NCBI RefSeq assembly: GCF_016900045.1
Contig: NZ_JACSNP010000001.1
Span: 124,001 to 188,000, forward strand
Source: Fusobacterium mortiferum
GTDB lineage: Bacteria > Fusobacteriota > Fusobacteriia > Fusobacteriales > Fusobacteriaceae
DNA length: 64,000 nucleotides
Direction of reading: 5' to 3'
The notes beneath the pieces are model-generated. The model was not told where the DNA came from. It did no database searches and worked only from the letters and a program-made list of their open reading frames with translations. Positions 1 through 22,257 of the stretch are shown piece after piece (position 1 is the first letter of the stretch; each line of letters opens with the position of its first letter). A program made the position numbers and the translations under genes.

Positions 1-32
1 ATAGTTTATGATTATACTGTGATGAAAAAATG

Positions 33-90
33 AATTGGGAGATAAAATTTTGTCACAATAATTTTATAGATAAATTGGGAGGATAAAATT
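33..90 (+). repeat. Duplicated Shine-Dalgarno leader before the first porin
   Basis: Two near-identical copies, AATTGGGAGATAAAATT (33-49) and AATTGGGAGGATAAAATT (73-90), differ by one inserted G. The second serves the porin ATG at 91. The first is followed by TTG-TCA-CAA-TAA, a potential three-codon ORF. A TATACT at 13-18 could be the -10 box, which would put both copies in the transcript; the -35 would lie outside the window. Whether the upstream copy is used by ribosomes is inference. Confidence 0.5.
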
Positions 91-957
91 ATGAAAAGAT
101 TAGCACTATTATTAGCAGCTATGGGAGTTATATCAGTAGGAGCAATGGCAGAAGCACCTGCATTAAAAGTTACAAATATAGGACAAGAATTAGAGATAGA
201 AAATGTATCTGGAAGCACAAATGGAGATATAGGAGCTACTACATTTACTACAACTGTAGGACTATCTTATGAAGACTGGTCGTTTGCAGTTCAAGCTGGA
301 AAAATGTGGACAATTGATACAGATAATGGGTTTGACAGTACAAATGGAAGAATGCAGTTTGATGTTTGGAATAAAGTAAATGAAAATTTAAATCTAGGAT
401 TTAGATATAGAGGACAATCTGACTATGATAGATATTATGGAAGAGCAGCATGGAATTATGGAATGGTATTTGGAGCTGCAGATGTTTGGTATCAATCTGT
501 AAATGGAAATGGAAATGACAATTTAGAGGCAGAAATTTTCCCAGTGGGAGTTAGTTATGGTGCTTTTAAGGCAGCATGGTTTGTAAACTACTGGAAATCA
601 ATAGGAAATACAGTAGATGGAGATAAGACAGAATATTTAGAAAACCAAATCAGATTATATGCTGACTTATATAAAGGGGAAAAATTAACACTTTCAACAG
701 AAGCGAGAATAACTTTAACAGCAGATGTAGATTATGAAGGTGGAAAGAAAACAGCAGCTCCTACAGAGTATGTATATAAAGATTTTGGAAGAAATAGATT
801 TTATTTAGGGGCTTCTTACCAAGTAACTGAATCTTTAAATGTTTATGGAAAATATGCATATGAATTTAGAGAACTTGATGTTGTAAAAACTAGTGAGAGA
901 ACAGATTCACAAAATTATTATGGTGACTTTATAGTTGGATGGAACTATACTTTCTAA
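91..957 (+). CDS. Outer-membrane porin-like protein, fusobacterial family
   Basis: This 288-residue protein should be a secreted outer-membrane beta-barrel. A signal peptide covers about residues 1-20 and ends in an AMA-type cleavage site. The mature part is rich in alternating aromatic and Gly/Asn/Asp strands, and the last residue is Phe (ending WNYTF), the usual BAM-recognition end of a barrel. The first 17 bases of the gene match those of the next porin, so both carry the MKRLALLL start. GGGAGG sits about 8 bases before the ATG. It is monocistronic and followed by a strong hairpin terminator. I recognise the family only as a fusobacterial outer-membrane protein; the substrate and pore properties are unknown. 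Confidence 0.8.
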   Translation: MKRLALLLAAMGVISVGAMAEAPALKVTNIGQELEIENVSGSTNGDIGATTFTTTVGLSYEDWSFAVQAGKMWTIDTDNGFDSTNGRMQFDVWNKVNENLNLGFRYRGQSDYDRYYGRAAWNYGMVFGAADVWYQSVNGNGNDNLEAEIFPVGVSYGAFKAAWFVNYWKSIGNTVDGDKTEYLENQIRLYADLYKGEKLTLSTEARITLTADVDYEGGKKTAAPTEYVYKDFGRNRFYLGASYQVTESLNVYGKYAYEFRELDVVKTSERTDSQNYYGDFIVGWNYTF

Positions 958-5802: not shown

Positions 5803-8427
5803 ATGGCAGAAACGCCACTTATGAGTCAATATAAAGAGATAAAATCTCAATATACAGATAGTATTTTACTTTTTAGACTTGGAGATTTTTATGAGATGTT
5901 TTTTGAAGATGCTGTAATAGCTTCAAAGGAGTTAGGTCTTACTCTCACAAGTAGAAATAGAGAAAAAGGGTATGAAGTTCCTTTAGCAGGAGTACCATAT
6001 CACTCTGTAGCTTCATATATAGCAAAGCTTGTAGCAAAGGGGCATAAGGTAGCTATCTGTGATCAAGTAGAGGATCCAAAATCATCTAAGGGTATTGTAA
6101 AAAGAGAGGTTACAAGGGTTATAACTCCGGGAACAATTATAGATACAGATTTCTTAGATGAAAAGAGTAATAACTATCTAATGGGAATAAAGATATCTGA
6201 TAATATTGGAGCTTTAGCCTATATAGATATAACAACTGGTGAATTTAAGACAAGTGAAATAGTTGGAGAAGATATACTATTTAGATTATTAGGAGAGATA
6301 AATAAGATTGCTCCGAAAGAGATAGTGTTGGATGAAAAGACTTATGATAACTATATAGATGAGTTCAAAAAGCACAACTCTCTAAGAGAGATAAAGTTTA
6401 CTAAGAGTGTAGAGAGAAAAAAAGCAGAGGAGTATTTAAAAAATTACTTTAATGTAATCTCTTTGGAAAGTTTTGGAATGAAAAATAGAAAAGAAGCCAT
6501 TACGGTATCTGCTTTGGTATTAGAGTATGTTGTAGATTTACAAAAAGGTAAGGAATTGCCAATCACAAACATAAGCTATGTAAGTAGTGAAAATGTGATG
6601 GAGCTAAATATTACTACTCAAAGAAATTTGGATATAGTAGATAACCAAAGGGAGAAGAGTGGAGCTGGAACACTTCTTTGGGTAATGGATAACTGTATGA
6701 CATCTATGGGAAGTAGATTACTAAAAAAATTCTTAAAAAACCCTCTTTTAGATGTTGAAAAGATAAAAGCAAGACAAAGAGATGTAAGTTTCTTTATAGA
6801 GAATGTATTACTTAGAGAGGAGATAAGAGAGAAACTAAAGGATACATATGATATAGAGAGAATAATAGGAAAACTAATTTTAGAAACAGAGAATGGAAGA
6901 GATTTAATAGCTTTAAAGACTTCTATAAAGAGTTCACTAGAAATTTTCAAATTGCTAAAGGGAAATCCACTGTTTGAAATAGATGTAAAAGCATTGGTAG
7001 AGATATATAATATGATAGAGAAAGCCATAGTAGACGAGCCACCATTCTCAGTTAGGGAAGGTGGAGTTATAAAGAGTGGATATAACTCTGACTTAGATGA
7101 GTTACATGGTATCTCAAAAGATGGAAAGGATTATATTCTTGAGATAGAGAATAGAGAGAGAGAAAGAACAGGAATAAAAGGGCTAAAGATAAAATATAAT
7201 AAGGTTTTTGGATATTTTATTGAGGTAACTAAGGCAAACTCAGCTCTTGTTCCAGAGGATTACATAAGAAAGCAAACTTTAGCTAATGCAGAAAGATATA
7301 TAGTGGCAGATTTAAAAGAGTATGAGGAAAAGGTACTTAATGCCAAGGAGAGAATAGAATCTCTTGAATACTATCTATTTAAAGAGTTGACAGCAGAGAT
7401 AAAAAAATATAGAGAGGAGTTACAAAATCTAGCTTATAAAGTAGCATATCTAGATGTAATTACTGACTTTGCTCATATAGCTGTTAAAAACTCATATATT
7501 CAACCAGAGATAAATGATGGTGATGAGATAGAGATAATAGCTGGAAGACATCCAGTAGTAGAGAAACTTATTCCAGCAGGAGAGTTTGTAAAAAATAATA
7601 TAGTATTTGATGATAAAAGAGAGATAATAATACTTACAGGTCCAAATATGTCTGGTAAATCAACATATATGAAGCAGACAGCTCTAATAATAATAATGGC
7701 TCACATAGGGTCATATGTTCCAGCTAACTATGCTAAAATTGGACTTGTAGATAAGATATTTACAAGGGTAGGTGCTAGTGATGACCTACTTACTGGACAA
7801 TCGACATTTATGCTAGAGATGAGTGAGGTAGCTAACATAGTAAACAGTGCTACAAAAAAATCATTTATTATCTTAGATGAGATTGGAAGAGGAACTTCTA
7901 CTTTTGATGGTATATCAATAGCAACAGCTATCACAGAGTATATACATGAGAAAATTGGAGCTAAGACAATATTTGCCACTCACTATCACGAGCTTACTCA
8001 ATTAGAGGATAAGTTAGAAAAAGCTGAAAACTTTAGAATTGAGGTAAAGGAAGATGATAAGGAGATAATCTTCTTAAGGGAGATAGTTAAAGGGGGAGCA
8101 GATAAATCTTATGGAATAGAGGTGGCAAGACTTGCTGGACTACCAAAGGAGATATTAGATAGGTCAAAATCTATTCTTAAGAGATTGGAGGAGAGAAAGG
8201 AGATAGTTGAAAAGAATCTAGGTGGAGAACAACTACTTCTTTTTGGAAATATGGCTCCAAAAGAGGAGGAGACTCAATGTAAAAAAGAGGCTCTAAAAGG
8301 TAAGGAGTTAACTAAAGAGCAAAAAATAGTAATGAGAGTACTAGATGAGATAGAGCCAGATAAATTAACACCATTAGAAGCACTATTGAAACTTAATGAG
8401 TTGAAAAAAATATTGAATGGGAGTTAA
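5803..8427 (+). CDS. mutS: DNA mismatch repair protein MutS
   Basis: This 874-residue protein recognises mismatches and starts methyl-independent or methyl-directed repair with MutL. The mismatch-contacting Phe-X-Glu is F29-Y30-E31 in GDFYEMFFEDA. The Walker A loop GPNMSGKST is at residues 613-621, followed by the ST[FM]LEMSE signature, Walker B (FIILDEIGRGTSTFDG) and the ATHYHELT switch. The C-terminal tail (PDKLTPLEALLKLNELKKI) resembles the tetramerisation helix-turn-helix. All expected domains are present and the length is normal. mutL is about 35 kb away, so the pair is not an operon here. Confidence 0.97.
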   Translation: MAETPLMSQYKEIKSQYTDSILLFRLGDFYEMFFEDAVIASKELGLTLTSRNREKGYEVPLAGVPYHSVASYIAKLVAKGHKVAICDQVEDPKSSKGIVKREVTRVITPGTIIDTDFLDEKSNNYLMGIKISDNIGALAYIDITTGEFKTSEIVGEDILFRLLGEINKIAPKEIVLDEKTYDNYIDEFKKHNSLREIKFTKSVERKKAEEYLKNYFNVISLESFGMKNRKEAITVSALVLEYVVDLQKGKELPITNISYVSSENVMELNITTQRNLDIVDNQREKSGAGTLLWVMDNCMTSMGSRLLKKFLKNPLLDVEKIKARQRDVSFFIENVLLREEIREKLKDTYDIERIIGKLILETENGRDLIALKTSIKSSLEIFKLLKGNPLFEIDVKALVEIYNMIEKAIVDEPPFSVREGGVIKSGYNSDLDELHGISKDGKDYILEIENRERERTGIKGLKIKYNKVFGYFIEVTKANSALVPEDYIRKQTLANAERYIVADLKEYEEKVLNAKERIESLEYYLFKELTAEIKKYREELQNLAYKVAYLDVITDFAHIAVKNSYIQPEINDGDEIEIIAGRHPVVEKLIPAGEFVKNNIVFDDKREIIILTGPNMSGKSTYMKQTALIIIMAHIGSYVPANYAKIGLVDKIFTRVGASDDLLTGQSTFMLEMSEVANIVNSATKKSFIILDEIGRGTSTFDGISIATAITEYIHEKIGAKTIFATHYHELTQLEDKLEKAENFRIEVKEDDKEIIFLREIVKGGADKSYGIEVARLAGLPKEILDRSKSILKRLEERKEIVEKNLGGEQLLLFGNMAPKEEETQCKKEALKGKELTKEQKIVMRVLDEIEPDKLTPLEALLKLNELKKILNGS

Positions 8428-8430
8428 AAT

Positions 8431-11115
8431 ATGAATAAGAAAAAAATAATATATGGAATAGCTATAATAGTAGTAGTTATATTGGGGTATTTAAACTACT
8501 TTGGTGATGAGGGAGAAGTAGGAAAGACAGAACAAGTAGTAGAAACTACTAATGTAACATATAGAAACGAGGATTATTTGGTTGAAGCCCAAAAACAAAA
8601 GGACTATATAAAAGAGAATGAGACGGGATTTGAAAAGGCGAAAGCAAAGGTAAATGATATGTTTCTAAGTGGAGATAATATCTTTATTGATAAAGTAAGA
8701 AACTTAGCCTTAAAAAATAATATCCTTGGAATAAGTCCTAATGGTTGGAGCTTTAAAGCTGAGAATATAGACTATAATAAATTAAAAGATGAGATAACTT
8801 CAACAACTGGAGTTACAGCTATAAATGATGAAAGAGGTTTGACAATCTCTGGACAAAACTTCACAACTGACTCAAAGATGAGTTATATTGAGTTGGAGAA
8901 AGATGTTACTTTAGAGGATAAAAATATAATCTTAAAGGGAGATAAGGGAAATTATGATGACTTATCTAAGATAGTTATTCTTTCTGACAATATTAAATTG
9001 GAAGGAAAGGGAGAGAATCAAGGTGTCATAGATGGAAACTTCAAAACTTTAAGATATAATATGGAGAGTAAAATTTTAGAAGCTTGGGAGCCTTTTGATG
9101 CTATATATAAAGGGGTAAAGTTATCAGCTGAATCCCTATATTTTAAAGAAGATACGGAAACTCTAAAGATCTCTAAAAATGTAGTTATTGAAGTAAATGG
9201 CTTTAAAATAAATGTAACTAGATTGGATAAGGGAGCAAATAGTGATATCTTAAATATTGTAGGAAAAATAAAGGGAAGTAACGGAATTTACTCTTTTGTA
9301 GGAGATGGGGGAACATATAACACTCAAAGCAAAGTACTAACTATTACAGGTAATATAGTTGGAACTTCTACAAAGGGAGAGAAGATAACAGGAGAGAAAC
9401 TTGTATATGATAGCAATACTCAACTGTTGACACTTTCTGGTAAAAAAGATGTAAGATACTCATCAGCAGATGGAGAATTAGTTACAAAATCTTTTACTTA
9501 TAATAATGCAACAAAGGAGCTTGTAACAGATGGAAGTTATAGTTTCATCGGACCAAAATATGAGAGTAAGGGTAAAAAACTTTACTTTAATAATACTACT
9601 AAGGATATAAAGATAACAGATGGGTATATCCTAGATAAGAGCAAAGGACAAAAACTTCAAGGAGAGCAACTTGCCTATAATACTAATACACAAGATAGTA
9701 GTGCAGTAGGTAAAGCTTATATGGAAGATAAGAGATATTCACTTTTAAGTGATAGTATTATCTATACAGGAGCAGATAAAAATGCTAAAATAAATGGTAA
9801 GTATACAGTGAAAGCTTTAGATGGTAGTATGATGTTTCAAGGTAAAGATGCTACATATAATCAAGGGAATGGAGAGTTTTTAAGTAGTGGTGATGTAACT
9901 CTTCAAAGTGATGGTTATACAGCTAAGGGAAGTAACTTAACTTATAATACAGAGAATGGACTTGGAAAATTAGGAAGTAGTATTGAGATAGTTAATCCTA
10001 AGGACAATGTAAGAATAACAGGAGATAACTTCTCTTTTAAAAATGGAGAGTATCTAGAGATAGATGGAAATCTTCATATGGAAAGTGATACTGTAATAGT
10101 TAATTCTCAAAGTGCTAAGTATAATTTAAAGGATAAAAATATCTATATTCCAGAAAAAATAGATTTTAAATCAAAAGATGGTAAAACTTATGGTATAATG
10201 GATAGAGGAGTTTACTATACTGAGGATTCAAAATTTGTAGGAGACAATTTTAGCGGAAAGAGCAATACAAGTACTTTGACAAGTAAAAAGATGACATATT
10301 TTTCAAAGGAAGAGAAATTACTTTTCCAAGATAAAGTTGTGATGAAAGATATTGATTCTACATTTAGAGGAGAAAGTGTAGAATATTATCCAAAGACTGA
10401 GACAATTAAATCATTAGATAAATATACAATTGACTATAAAGATTTTACATTTAAGGGAGATAGTGGAGTATTTAATAACAAAACAGGAATCTTAGATGGA
10501 AATAGATCTGATATAACAACAGTAAATGGTGATAGATTTACATCTGATAAGATACATGGAAACTTAAAAGAGATGATAATGGATTTTATAGGAGATGTAA
10601 AGGGTGAAGTCAAGGATAAGGGAGTTGTAACAACTTTTGAAGGAGACTTTGCAAGAGTATACTTTAAAAATAGTGGAAAGTATGAGATATTAAGAAGTGA
10701 GATAAGAGAAAATGCTGTCTTTGTACAAGGAGATAAAAAATTAGAGTCTGATTATATAGAGATAGATTCAAATAGAAGATTAGTTTTTTCTAAGGAGAGT
10801 ACAAAATTGACTATTGTTGATGATGTAAATGGTGAAACAATAATAAAATCAGCAGTGGCAGAAGTAGATATAGAGAATGATATAGCTACTTTGATAGGAA
10901 ATGTGTATATTGAAAATAGAAACTCTGAATATGGATTGACAACAGTAAAAGCCGATAGAGGAATAATTAGACAAAAAACTGGAACAGTAGAATTAATTGG
11001 ACATGTAGAGATAGAAAATGAAGAATCTATAGTTCAGGCCGATAGAGGAATTTATAATATGGAAACTAAGAAAATAAAAGCCTCTGGAAATGTTTATGTA
11101 GACTATAAAAAATAA
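8431..11115 (+). CDS. Giant LptC/LptA (OstA)-like periplasmic LPS bridge protein
   Basis: This 894-residue protein has a single N-terminal membrane anchor (about residues 5-22, IIYGIAIIVVVILGYL) and an otherwise periplasmic chain. It is made of many short OstA/LptA-type beta repeats such as GEKLVYDSNTQLLTLSG and ADRGIYNMETKKIKASGNV. Standard LptC (about 190 residues) has one anchor plus one beta-jellyroll, and LptA (about 185) is one jellyroll. By length this chain could hold around five jellyroll units. It lies three bases after mutS and 11 before lptB, as lptC-lptA-lptB do elsewhere, so it most likely connects LptB2FG to the outer membrane. I infer that one chain replaces LptC plus an LptA oligomer. 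Confidence 0.8.
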   Translation: MNKKKIIYGIAIIVVVILGYLNYFGDEGEVGKTEQVVETTNVTYRNEDYLVEAQKQKDYIKENETGFEKAKAKVNDMFLSGDNIFIDKVRNLALKNNILGISPNGWSFKAENIDYNKLKDEITSTTGVTAINDERGLTISGQNFTTDSKMSYIELEKDVTLEDKNIILKGDKGNYDDLSKIVILSDNIKLEGKGENQGVIDGNFKTLRYNMESKILEAWEPFDAIYKGVKLSAESLYFKEDTETLKISKNVVIEVNGFKINVTRLDKGANSDILNIVGKIKGSNGIYSFVGDGGTYNTQSKVLTITGNIVGTSTKGEKITGEKLVYDSNTQLLTLSGKKDVRYSSADGELVTKSFTYNNATKELVTDGSYSFIGPKYESKGKKLYFNNTTKDIKITDGYILDKSKGQKLQGEQLAYNTNTQDSSAVGKAYMEDKRYSLLSDSIIYTGADKNAKINGKYTVKALDGSMMFQGKDATYNQGNGEFLSSGDVTLQSDGYTAKGSNLTYNTENGLGKLGSSIEIVNPKDNVRITGDNFSFKNGEYLEIDGNLHMESDTVIVNSQSAKYNLKDKNIYIPEKIDFKSKDGKTYGIMDRGVYYTEDSKFVGDNFSGKSNTSTLTSKKMTYFSKEEKLLFQDKVVMKDIDSTFRGESVEYYPKTETIKSLDKYTIDYKDFTFKGDSGVFNNKTGILDGNRSDITTVNGDRFTSDKIHGNLKEMIMDFIGDVKGEVKDKGVVTTFEGDFARVYFKNSGKYEILRSEIRENAVFVQGDKKLESDYIEIDSNRRLVFSKESTKLTIVDDVNGETIIKSAVAEVDIENDIATLIGNVYIENRNSEYGLTTVKADRGIIRQKTGTVELIGHVEIENEESIVQADRGIYNMETKKIKASGNVYVDYKK

Positions 11116-11126
11116 GGAGATAAGTT

Positions 11127-11852
11127 ATGATAAATTTATCAGCTCAAAATCTATGTAAAAGTTATAAAAAAAGAAAAGTTGTAACTGATGTAAGTCTAGA
11201 AGTAAAAAAAGGTGAGATAGTTGGACTATTAGGACCAAATGGTGCTGGAAAGACTACTACTTTCTATATGATAACTGGAATAGTAAGACCAGATAGTGGA
11301 AGTGTATTCTGTGATAATATAGAGGTTACAGATTATCCAATGTATAAGAGAGCTAATATGGGAATAGGATATCTTGCCCAAGAGCCATCAATATTTAGAA
11401 ACTTGAGTGTAGAGGAGAATATAGCTGCTGTACTTGAGATGAAAGGTATTAGTAAAGGGGAGCAAAGAGAGACAATAGATAAACTTTTAGAGGAGTTTAA
11501 ATTAACTCATGTTCAAAAATCTTTAGGATTTTCTCTTTCAGGTGGAGAGAGAAGAAGGGTAGAGATAGCTAGAACAATAGCTAATAATCCGAGCTTTATC
11601 CTACTGGATGAGCCTTTTGCTGGAGTTGACCCAATAGCAGTAGAGGATATTCAACAGATAATAAGATATCTAAAAAATAGAGGATTAGGAATACTTATCA
11701 CTGATCACAGTGTAAGAGAGACTTTAAGAATTACAGAGAAAGCCTATATAATGGCTCAAGGAAAAGTACTTATAAGTGGAACACCAGAAGAGATAGCTGA
11801 GAATGAAACTGCTAGAAAAATTTACCTAGGTGAAAAGTTTAAACTTGATTAA
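11127..11852 (+). CDS. lptB: LPS export ABC transporter ATPase LptB
   Basis: This 241-residue cytoplasmic ATPase powers lipopolysaccharide extraction by LptFG. The Walker A loop GPNGAGKTT is at residues 36-44. The Q-loop region reads GYLAQEPSIFRNLSVEENI, a typical LptB sequence, followed by the signature SLSGGERRRVEIAR, Walker B FILLDEPFAGVDPIAV and the H-loop ITDHSVRETL. It follows the giant LptC/A-like gene directly. Its membrane partners LptF and LptG are encoded at 20.1-22.3 kb. Confidence 0.95.
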   Translation: MINLSAQNLCKSYKKRKVVTDVSLEVKKGEIVGLLGPNGAGKTTTFYMITGIVRPDSGSVFCDNIEVTDYPMYKRANMGIGYLAQEPSIFRNLSVEENIAAVLEMKGISKGEQRETIDKLLEEFKLTHVQKSLGFSLSGGERRRVEIARTIANNPSFILLDEPFAGVDPIAVEDIQQIIRYLKNRGLGILITDHSVRETLRITEKAYIMAQGKVLISGTPEEIAENETARKIYLGEKFKLD

Positions 11853-20098: not shown

Positions 20099-21175
20099 AT
20101 GAAACTTATAGATAAATATATTTTAAATGAGATAAAGATACCAGTTCTCTTTGGAGTTTCATTATTTACATTTATATTTTTAATAGATATCATAGTAGCT
20201 ATGATGGAAAATATTATAGTAAAAGGAATTTCGATCATAGATGTAATAAGAATTTTGTCTTTTTATCTTCCACCAATTTTATCCCAAACTATACCGATGG
20301 GGATGTTTTTAGGAATAATGTTGACATTTTCTAAGTTTACTAGAACAAGTGAGGCAACAGCAATGAGTGCGGTTGGAATGTCTTTAAAAGATATAGTTAA
20401 GCCTGTCTTTATAGCAGCGTGTTGTATAACACTTTTTATCTTTTTTTTACAAGAGAGTATAATTCCAAGATCTATGGCTAAATTACAGTTTTTAACTGCT
20501 AAGATAGCTTATGAAAATCCTGTATTTCAGTTAAAAGAGAAAACATTTATTGATGAAGTAGATGAGTATAATCTTTATATAGATAGAATGGATGGAAAAG
20601 ATAAGATTGCAAAGGGGATTTTAATATTTCAAAAAGCTGAAGATAAGCCATTTCCTACAGTTGTAGTTGGGGAGGAAGCTTATTGGAAAGATTCGGCAAT
20701 GGTATTAAAGAACTCGAAATTTTATAACTTCAATGATAAGGGAAAAGAGGTTTTAAGAGGAGAGTTTGATGAGAAGAGAATACCTTTAGCCGCTTACTTT
20801 AGTGAGATAGAGATAAAGGTAAAAGATTTAGAGGCTATGGGAATTGGTAAACTTTTAAAGGAGATGAAAGACAAATCACCAGCTGAACAGATACCATATA
20901 AAGTAGAGATAAATAAAAAGTTAGCAGTACCATTATCAACAATTATGCTATCTCTATTGGGAGTATTTCTATCAATAGGACATCATAGAAGTGGAAAGGG
21001 AGCTAATTTTGCTCTAAGTCTAATAGTAATATTTTCATATATCACTTGCCTAAATGTAGGAATGGTAATGGCAACAAAGGGAATAGTTCCTGCTTTTATA
21101 GGAGTATGGATACCAAATATAATACTTTTCCTACTGACTCTATTTATGTATAAGAAAAAAGCAGAGGTGATATAG
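20099..21175 (+). CDS. lptF: LPS export permease LptF
   Basis: This 358-residue YjgP/YjgQ-family permease has three N-terminal membrane helices, a periplasmic beta-jellyroll (about residues 125-270) and three C-terminal helices. Conserved points are the N-terminal DKYILNEI, the TFSKFTRTSEATAMSAVGMS coupling-helix region that contacts LptB, and the late VPLSTIMLSLLGVFLSIG. It overlaps the next gene by one base, so LptF and LptG are translationally coupled. Confidence 0.92.
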   Translation: MKLIDKYILNEIKIPVLFGVSLFTFIFLIDIIVAMMENIIVKGISIIDVIRILSFYLPPILSQTIPMGMFLGIMLTFSKFTRTSEATAMSAVGMSLKDIVKPVFIAACCITLFIFFLQESIIPRSMAKLQFLTAKIAYENPVFQLKEKTFIDEVDEYNLYIDRMDGKDKIAKGILIFQKAEDKPFPTVVVGEEAYWKDSAMVLKNSKFYNFNDKGKEVLRGEFDEKRIPLAAYFSEIEIKVKDLEAMGIGKLLKEMKDKSPAEQIPYKVEINKKLAVPLSTIMLSLLGVFLSIGHHRSGKGANFALSLIVIFSYITCLNVGMVMATKGIVPAFIGVWIPNIILFLLTLFMYKKKAEVI

Positions 21176-22257
21176 TGAGAATTATAGATAGATATATCAG
21201 TAAAAATTTCATAAAATCCTTTATGTTGAGCTTAATGGCTTTTATGGGAATATTTATAGTTAGCCAGCTTTTTAGAGTTGTGAAATATCTGAGTGATGGA
21301 AGATTTACTCCAAGTGATGCTGTATATTATATAGTAACTCTTCTTCCTAGAACTTTTATTGATGTTGCTCCTCTAGCTATACTATTGGGAAGTATGATGA
21401 CAATAAGTAGTATGGCTTCAAATCTTGAAATAATATCTCTTAAAACATCTGGAATAAAATTTAAGAGAATAGTTTTATTCCCAATAATAATTTCAGGTAT
21501 AATATCTGGAGTAGTATTCTTTGTAAATGATACTTTGTATCCTATCTCTTTAAAGATAAATAGAGATTTAAGAAGTGGAGAGGTACAAAAAAGAGTTGCT
21601 CCTGTTGAAAAAAGAAATGCCTTCTTAAGAGGAGAGGATTCTAACTATATCTATTTGATGCAAAAAATAAATAGAGAGAGTGGATTAGCTGAAAATATAG
21701 AGATAATAGATATGAATGAAAATTTTAATAGGGTAGAGAGAATAATAACTGCCCCTCAAGGAAGATACAATTTTACAAAAAAGGTATGGGTATTAAAAGA
21801 TGCTAATATCTATTATGGAGATGATAATAAAAAATCTAAAAGTAAGGAGTATTTTTCAGAAAATAAATATAAAGATAATCCAGAAAATTTCATAACTTTA
21901 ACAGTTGAACCTAGAACACTTACAATAAAAGAGTTAAAAAAGACTATTAGAGAGATGAAGAGCATAGGTGGAGATACAAGAGAGTTATTAGTTGAATTAG
22001 CAAATAGATACTCTTTCCCATTTGCAAGTTTTGTAATTTCATTTTTAGGACTTGCTTTAGGCGGAAGATATGTAAGAGGAACTTCGGCAGTAAGTTTAGG
22101 AGTTTGTGTCTTACTTGGATACGGATACTATGTTGTACAAGCTTCGTTTGAAGCTATGAGTTCAAATGGATTTTTAAATCCATTTGTAGGTGGATGGATT
22201 CCAAATATAATATTTTTAGTTGTTGGAATATATTTTATGAATAAAGCAGAATACTAG
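21175..22257 (+). CDS. lptG: LPS export permease LptG (GTG start)
   Basis: This 360-residue second permease of the YjgP/YjgQ family completes LptB2FG. It starts at GTG, overlapping the lptF stop (TAGTG), with GAGGTGA upstream. It shows IIDRYISKNFIKSF, the coupling-helix segment SNLEIISLKTSGIKFKRI, a central periplasmic domain, and the C-terminal FPFASFVISFLGLALGGRY. The assignment of F versus G follows gene order and sequence style and could be reversed. Confidence 0.9.
   Translation: MRIIDRYISKNFIKSFMLSLMAFMGIFIVSQLFRVVKYLSDGRFTPSDAVYYIVTLLPRTFIDVAPLAILLGSMMTISSMASNLEIISLKTSGIKFKRIVLFPIIISGIISGVVFFVNDTLYPISLKINRDLRSGEVQKRVAPVEKRNAFLRGEDSNYIYLMQKINRESGLAENIEIIDMNENFNRVERIITAPQGRYNFTKKVWVLKDANIYYGDDNKKSKSKEYFSENKYKDNPENFITLTVEPRTLTIKELKKTIREMKSIGGDTRELLVELANRYSFPFASFVISFLGLALGGRYVRGTSAVSLGVCVLLGYGYYVVQASFEAMSSNGFLNPFVGGWIPNIIFLVVGIYFMNKAEY

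What the first reader, a model, noticed from the sequence alone, without database searches (positions are those of the whole stretch)
8431..11115. Single-chain LptC/LptA-type bridge of 894 residues
Seen: one N-terminal anchor, then a continuous array of OstA-like beta repeats with no second signal peptide or linker, directly before lptB. Established: in E. coli, separate LptC and oligomerising LptA connect LptB2FG to LptD. Inference: here one chain replaces LptC plus several LptA copies and might span the periplasm alone, which would fix the bridge length genetically rather than by oligomerisation.
Basis: partly seen in the sequence, partly recalled or inferred. Interest (0 to 1): 0.6.

Follow-up and report, generated by a model that had tools for sequence, protein, structure and literature searches.

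The report
Single-chain lipopolysaccharide bridge in Fusobacteria
In Fusobacteria, one long membrane-anchored protein appears to do the job that two proteins (LptC plus several copies of LptA) share in E. coli, carrying lipopolysaccharide towards the outer membrane, and its length changes between species in steps of one structural repeat.

Summary
Window 8431-11115 (+) encodes 894 aa: one N-terminal membrane helix (4-23), then unbroken LptA/LptC-type beta-taco (about 40-892), 11 bp before lptB. It scores as LptC (TIGR04409, 108.8 bits). The 99.95%-complete genome has LptB, LptF, LptG, LpxC and a divergent LptD on another contig, but no second LptA/LptC-like gene, even with a 16-sequence profile at E<=10. 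AlphaFold2 gives one continuous beta structure; solved LptC, LptA and LptD-N structures match at several places along it. The arrangement is phylum-wide: the same mutS-chain-lptB-alaS locus, mostly 713-1093 aa, and lost together with LptFG and LpxC in nine genomes. The chain is a ~29.7-residue repeat array. Indels of 20 aa or more between relatives are multiples of ~30 residues (90-93% within 3 aa; 23% expected). Three genomes have natural half-length forms that keep both conserved ends. Most likely it is a single-chain LptC+LptA replacement, roughly 7 LptA-equivalents (up to ~27 nm, inferred). Whether one chain spans the periplasm, and sets its width, is untested. It is a new variant of a known kind (the Lpt bridge); I found no description in the open-access papers searched.

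The parts
8431..11115 (+). Single-chain LptC/LptA-type bridge protein, 894 aa
   Evidence: ORF; Pfam LptC/LptD_N/OstA_2; TIGR04409 LptC 108.8 bits; AF2 model; phylum-wide homologues
8440..8499 (+). N-terminal transmembrane helix (aa 4-23), uncleaved anchor, no lipobox
   Evidence: AF2 N-terminal model H4-23, low confidence in this stretch; hydrophobic sequence IIYGIAIIVVVILGYLNYF; LptC 6mit_C aligns from residue 2
8548..11106 (+). Continuous beta-taco, aa 40-892, about 57 rungs of ~14.85 residues (about 29 repeats of ~29.7)
   Evidence: alternating hydrophobic face kept along the whole chain
8431..8880 (+). Conserved N-terminal end (aa 1-150), inferred LptF/G docking end
   Evidence: mean pairwise identity per 30-residue block 0.38-0.47 against 0.22-0.26 in most of the middle; kept in natural half-length forms
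11041..11112 (+). Conserved C-terminal end (aa 871-894), inferred LptD N-domain docking end
   Evidence: mean pairwise identity 0.43; kept in natural half-length forms
11127..11852 (+). lptB, LPS export ATPase
   Evidence: TIGR04406 378.7 bits; 11 bp after the chain
20099..22257 (+). lptF and lptG permease genes (20099-21175 and 21175-22257)
   Evidence: PF03739 E 1.9e-79 and 3.8e-81; ORFs
5803..8427 (+). mutS, conserved upstream neighbour (synteny marker)
   Evidence: ORF; same order mutS-chain-lptB-alaS in relatives

Best explanation
The protein is the Fusobacterial Lpt bridge in one piece. Its N-terminal helix anchors it in the inner membrane, and its first rungs play the LptC role at LptB2FG. 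A hydrophobic beta-taco groove of about 57 rungs (about 7 LptA-equivalents) carries LPS. The conserved C-terminal end hands it to the N-domain of a divergent LptD. Shown: gene, anchor, continuous predicted fold, absence of separate lptA/lptC, presence of LptB, LptF, LptG, LptD and LpxC, and co-loss with LPS synthesis. Inferred: docking at each end, groove transport, spanning by one molecule, and genetic setting of bridge length by gain and loss of ~30-residue (two-rung) units in the middle.
For: TIGR04409 LptC equivalog above cut-off. The only LptC/OstA-type gene found in a 99.95%-complete genome. LptB adjacent, LptF/G 9-11 kb downstream, LptD of 1252 aa found, LpxC present. Nine genomes lack PF03968, LptFG and LpxC together. 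AF2 gives a continuous beta structure (mean pLDDT 75.7; mostly 80-89 over aa 121-780), with the N-terminal part joining TM helix to beta-taco from aa 40. Foldseek: LptC TMt 0.85, LptA 0.78; Lpt structures match at 44-217, 105-270, 212-346 and 701-894. Repeat period 29.7, strand period 14.85. Indels come in ~30-residue units. Ends conserved, middle free. Amphipathic alternation along the whole chain.
Against: No experiment. The structure rests on a two-sequence alignment, the five models vary (54-76 mean pLDDT) and pTM is 0.47, so overall shape and length are unreliable. Two genomes (G067, G001) carry the chain or OstA hits and LptFG without a detected LpxC, so the cargo may not always be LPS, or those assemblies are incomplete. 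A straight ~27 nm chain plus LptF/G and LptD domains exceeds the 21 nm periplasm of E. coli (PMC5575297).
Confidence: 0.85

Rival explanations
1. The chain is the LptC/LptA replacement, but one molecule does not span: two or more chains, or additional unrecognised proteins, complete the bridge, so its length is not fixed by this gene alone. (This shares the core of the best explanation and disputes only the spanning step.)
For: Natural half-length chains of 433- and 471-codon frames in three genomes with LpxC and LptFG; outgroup G097 has chain genes in tandem plus one beside lptD; E. coli LptA oligomerises through its ends (PMC5575297).
Against: Only one such gene in this genome; the chain already holds more LptA-equivalents than the E. 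coli bridge needs by the published estimate (PMC5575297); an N-terminal membrane anchor on each copy makes head-to-tail stacking awkward.
Confidence: 0.25
2. A TamB/AsmA-like bridge for phospholipids rather than an Lpt component.
For: Same architecture principle (N-terminal helix, long beta-taco; PMC5719984, PMC8593681); no Pfam TamB hit in this genome, so phospholipid carriers are unaccounted for.
Against: Best family matches are LptC/LptD_N/OstA; adjacent to lptB in relatives; co-lost with LptFG and LpxC; if it were not LptC/LptA the genome would have LptBFG and LptD but no bridge.
Confidence: 0.05
3. An Lpt bridge whose cargo in some lineages is not LPS, as proposed for Borrelia.
For: G067 and G001 have chain or OstA hits and LptFG but no LpxC hit; Borrelia has an Lpt system without LPS (PMC10353723).
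Against: This genome has LpxC; those two assemblies are only 88 and 91% complete.
Confidence: 0.05
4. A false reading: a long repeat protein (for example MORN-like) that merely resembles OstA repeats.
For: MORN proteins give Z 13-14 in structure comparison.
Against: Sequence families LptC and OstA score far above cut-offs; a family profile finds LptA structures first at 1.7e-7; membrane anchor, synteny and co-loss.
Confidence: 0.02

Closest known systems
E. coli LptC (YrbK) and LptA (YhbN)
   Same: Beta-taco fold; N-terminal anchor as in LptC; encoded immediately upstream of lptB; TIGR04409 match; structural match to both
   Different: Two genes there, with one jellyroll each and LptA oligomerising; here one chain of about 7 domain-equivalents and no separate LptA
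LptA/LptC-like pair of Negativicutes and Halanaerobiales (PMC5007114)
   Same: OstA-domain proteins clustered with lptB
   Different: Two ~200-aa proteins and one LptF/G there; one 894-aa chain and two permeases (LptF, LptG) here
Borrelia BbLptC/BbLptA (PMC10353723)
   Same: Beta-taco bridge from LptB2FG to LptD
   Different: Separate short proteins, 41.9 and 55.2 Angstrom long; no LPS in that organism
TamB, YhdP, YdbH (AsmA-like) bridges
   Same: Long beta-taco proteins tied to lipid traffic between the membranes; TamB is reported to span the periplasm (PMC5719984, PMC8593681); the single-chain, N-terminally anchored layout is from general knowledge
   Different: Different sequence family, linked to phospholipid traffic, not encoded with lptB

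Membership tests
LptC (TIGR04409) | Sequence above the curated cut-off | tested here: met
   108.8 bits against 38; Pfam LptC 72.8 against 21
LptC (TIGR04409) | N-terminal inner-membrane helix followed by a beta-jellyroll | tested here: met
   H4-23, strands from aa 40; 6mit_C aligned 2..300
LptC (TIGR04409) | One jellyroll domain, about 190 aa in all | tested here: not met
   894 aa, about 7 domain-equivalents
LptC (TIGR04409) | Binds LptF/G | not testable with these tools
   Only genome context: lptF and lptG present
LptA (TIGR03002) | Sequence above the curated cut-off | tested here: not met
   49.1 bits against 71.7
LptA (TIGR03002) | Soluble periplasmic protein with a cleaved signal peptide | tested here: inconclusive
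   N-terminal hydrophobic helix runs into a charged linker; no cleavage-type motif seen by eye and no Cys; no signal-peptide predictor was available
LptA (TIGR03002) | LptA beta-taco fold | tested here: met
   2r1a_H TMt 0.78, rmsd 2.1; 2r1a_G Z 13.9 at 227-346
Lpt trans-envelope system | LptB, LptF, LptG and LptD in the same genome | tested here: met
Lpt trans-envelope system | Exports LPS | not testable with these tools
   LpxC present and co-lost phylum-wide
TamB (PF04357) | TamB sequence family | tested here: not met
   The chain matches no TamB model at E<=1 and no TamB hit in the genome at E 0.01

The most novel reading that the evidence does not exclude
In Fusobacteriota the LPS bridge is one polypeptide that acts as a genetic ruler: the number of ~30-residue two-rung units in its middle sets bridge length and co-varies with periplasm width, and lineages with half-length chains have a correspondingly narrower periplasm.
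Probability: 0.35. Interest if true: 0.8.

Novelty: new variant of a known kind. Interest (0 to 1): 0.6.

Why it matters
In E. coli it is not settled how many LptA copies form the bridge or whether stable oligomers are needed (PMC5575297). A phylum that encodes the whole bridge in one gene, with lengths that step by one repeat and natural half-length versions, would let bridge length be read from sequence and compared directly with periplasm width. It could also be shortened or lengthened by whole repeats in a laboratory strain.

Tried and rejected
Pfam LptD families PF04453 and PF19838 find nothing in this genome. That was misleading: a Fusobacteriota LptD profile (A1) also missed it here, but the LptD of a genome of the same species found it. 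This also means a Pfam-only absence of lptA/lptC is weak, so it was repeated with a 16-chain profile; that profile did not report LptD's own OstA domain either, so a very divergent LptA cannot be fully excluded. Viral contigs hold no relative. PDB sequence search with the single chain was uninformative; with the alignment it works. LptF-LptG fusions suggested by ~720-aa open frames were checked and are separate genes. A 752-aa chain in G041 is an ~899-aa chain interrupted by a frameshift. Other phyla could not be surveyed for single-chain forms with the searches left. No published width of the Fusobacterium periplasm was found.

Full report
Observation. The ORF at 8431-11115 (+) is 894 aa, starts 3 bp after mutS with a ggag motif upstream, and ends 11 bp before lptB. 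Pfam LptC, LptD_N and OstA_2 all match over cut-off in several stretches, and NCBIfam TIGR04409 (LptC) reaches 108.8 bits against a cut-off of 38. TIGR03002 (LptA) stays below its cut-off, 49.1 against 71.7. The downstream gene is lptB (378.7 bits). The relative found in named genomes is a Fusobacterium MAG at 33-34% identity, which genome search places in the same family (G018), so the window is Fusobacteriaceae.

Is it the only bridge gene? The window's genome is 99.95% complete with 283 contigs. LptC and LptD_N profiles hit only this ORF. Because Pfam profiles also missed this genome's LptD, I repeated the search with a profile of 16 Fusobacteriota chains at E<=10: again only this ORF. A separate but extremely divergent LptA cannot be formally excluded. 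LptF and LptG lie at 20099-22257, LpxC is present, and LptD is a 1252-aa ORF on contig C55, found with the LptD of a genome of the same species. LptD homologues across the phylum were first recognised from ~1230-aa ORFs with an N-terminal OstA domain and sit beside thrS in relatives.

Phylum-wide distribution. Of 98 genomes, 88 have PF03968 hits. One more (G049) has the chain without reaching the threshold. Seventy-seven loci were read. Each has a long chain gene; 75 give 713-1093 aa (one of these, the 752-aa G041 reading, is interrupted by a frameshift) and two are the short forms discussed below. The median is 894. Where flanks were inspected the order is mutS-chain-lptB-alaS. Lengths are near-constant within many genera (893-896 in the window's genus; 918 in nine of ten genomes read of genus g3). 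Nine genomes lack PF03968, LptF/G and LpxC all at once. That co-loss ties the chain to LPS transport.

Structure. AlphaFold2 on a two-sequence alignment gave mean pLDDT 75.7 and one beta structure from aa 98 to 892 with no non-strand run over 7 residues. A separate model of aa 1-310 shows a helix at 4-23 and beta-taco strands from aa 40 on (pLDDT about 80-95 over aa 91-190, pTM 0.70); the helix itself is predicted at low confidence. Foldseek matches LptC (TMt 0.85, rmsd 2.1) and LptA (TMt 0.78) crystal structures. VIA-align places LptD-N, LptC and LptA at several places along the chain: 44-217, 105-270, 212-346, 701-894. One LptA equals about 120 residues of chain and one LptC about 127, so aa 40-892 is about 7 domain-equivalents, that is LptC plus about six LptA. 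Strand period is 14.85 residues, giving about 57 rungs. At 4.8 Angstrom per strand (textbook spacing) that is at most about 27 nm; twist and curvature would shorten it. The E. coli periplasm is quoted as 21 nm and a bridge with one LptA as about 16 nm (PMC5575297). Hydrophobic alternation is kept on one face along the entire chain (odd-even difference 2.28 against 1.54 +/- 0.12 for shuffles), as a lipid groove needs.

Repeats and length. Profile self-comparison gives peaks at lags 29, 59, 88-90, 119, 148, 178 and 207, a ~29.7-residue unit, two rungs. Among 398 pairs at 42% identity or more, 249 internal indels of at least 20 aa fall almost all at 28-35, 54-66, 88-97 and 120-126. Of these, 90-93% are within 3 residues of a multiple of 30-30.5, against 23% by chance; after removing duplicates by length and place, 79-84% of 62. 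Pairs share ancestry, so independent events are fewer than these counts. Two genomes of one genus (G031, G034) have 471-codon frames and G048 a 433-codon frame. In G034 and G048 this is an in-frame loss of about 450-470 central residues with the N-terminal 160-255 and C-terminal 190-260 residues kept; G031 has the same length and closely similar termini as G034. Conservation has the same shape: identity 0.38-0.47 over aa 1-150 and 0.43 over 871-894, against 0.22-0.26 in most of the middle. I infer two docking ends and a spacer that evolves by whole repeats.

Outgroup. G097 (another family in the same class, outside the window's order) has a 942-codon chain followed by a second OstA chain split over two overlapping frames (153 and 645 codons; probable frameshift) with its own N-terminal helix, then lptB. 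A third, 906-aa chain lies beside an lptD. Long chains are thus old in the phylum.

Mechanism. Shown: one gene, anchor, continuous predicted groove, full remaining Lpt set, co-loss with LPS synthesis. Inferred: the N-end replaces LptC at LptB2FG, the groove replaces stacked LptA, the C-end meets LptD. Not shown: that a single molecule spans, and that its length sets periplasm width. The main rival is that chains still associate or that another protein completes the bridge, as half-length forms might suggest.

Known or new. The fold and system are the Lpt bridge. Open-access papers searched describe separate LptA/LptC in proteobacteria, diderm Firmicutes (PMC5007114) and Borrelia (PMC10353723), and long beta-taco bridges for TamB/YhdP/YdbH (PMC5719984, PMC8593681). 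None that I found described the Fusobacterial chain. The library lacks most subscription papers, so absence of a description is not proof. I could not survey other phyla for single-chain forms.

Noticed in passing
G031 C1 (L152), G034 C22 (L140), G048 C1 (L139): Natural half-length bridge chains (471-, 471- and 433-codon frames) in the Lpt chain locus (beside lptB, and mutS/alaS where read), with the central ~450-470 residues missing in frame.
   Followed up: partly
G097 C58 and C60 (L056, L057): Outgroup genome with tandem long OstA chains before lptB (the second split over two overlapping frames) and a third chain beside an lptD; several lptD-like genes.
   Followed up: partly
G067, G001: OstA chain or hits and LptFG present but no LpxC hit (88 and 91% complete): possible Lpt without LPS, as in Borrelia.
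   Followed up: no
G064, G082, G083, G091-G096: Nine genomes of one family lack the chain, LptFG and LpxC together: LPS-less Fusobacteriota.
   Followed up: yes
G000 C55:7619-11374 (-) (L090): Divergent LptD (1252 aa) missed by both Pfam LptD families and by a phylum profile at E 0.001; annotation pipelines may report Fusobacteriaceae as lacking LptD.
   Followed up: yes
whole genome G000: No Pfam TamB hit at E 0.01, so the phospholipid bridge of this genome is unidentified.
   Followed up: no
window 91-957 and 1344-2435: Two secreted, beta-barrel-like outer membrane protein ORFs upstream, each with an MKRLALLL-type signal peptide.
   Followed up: no
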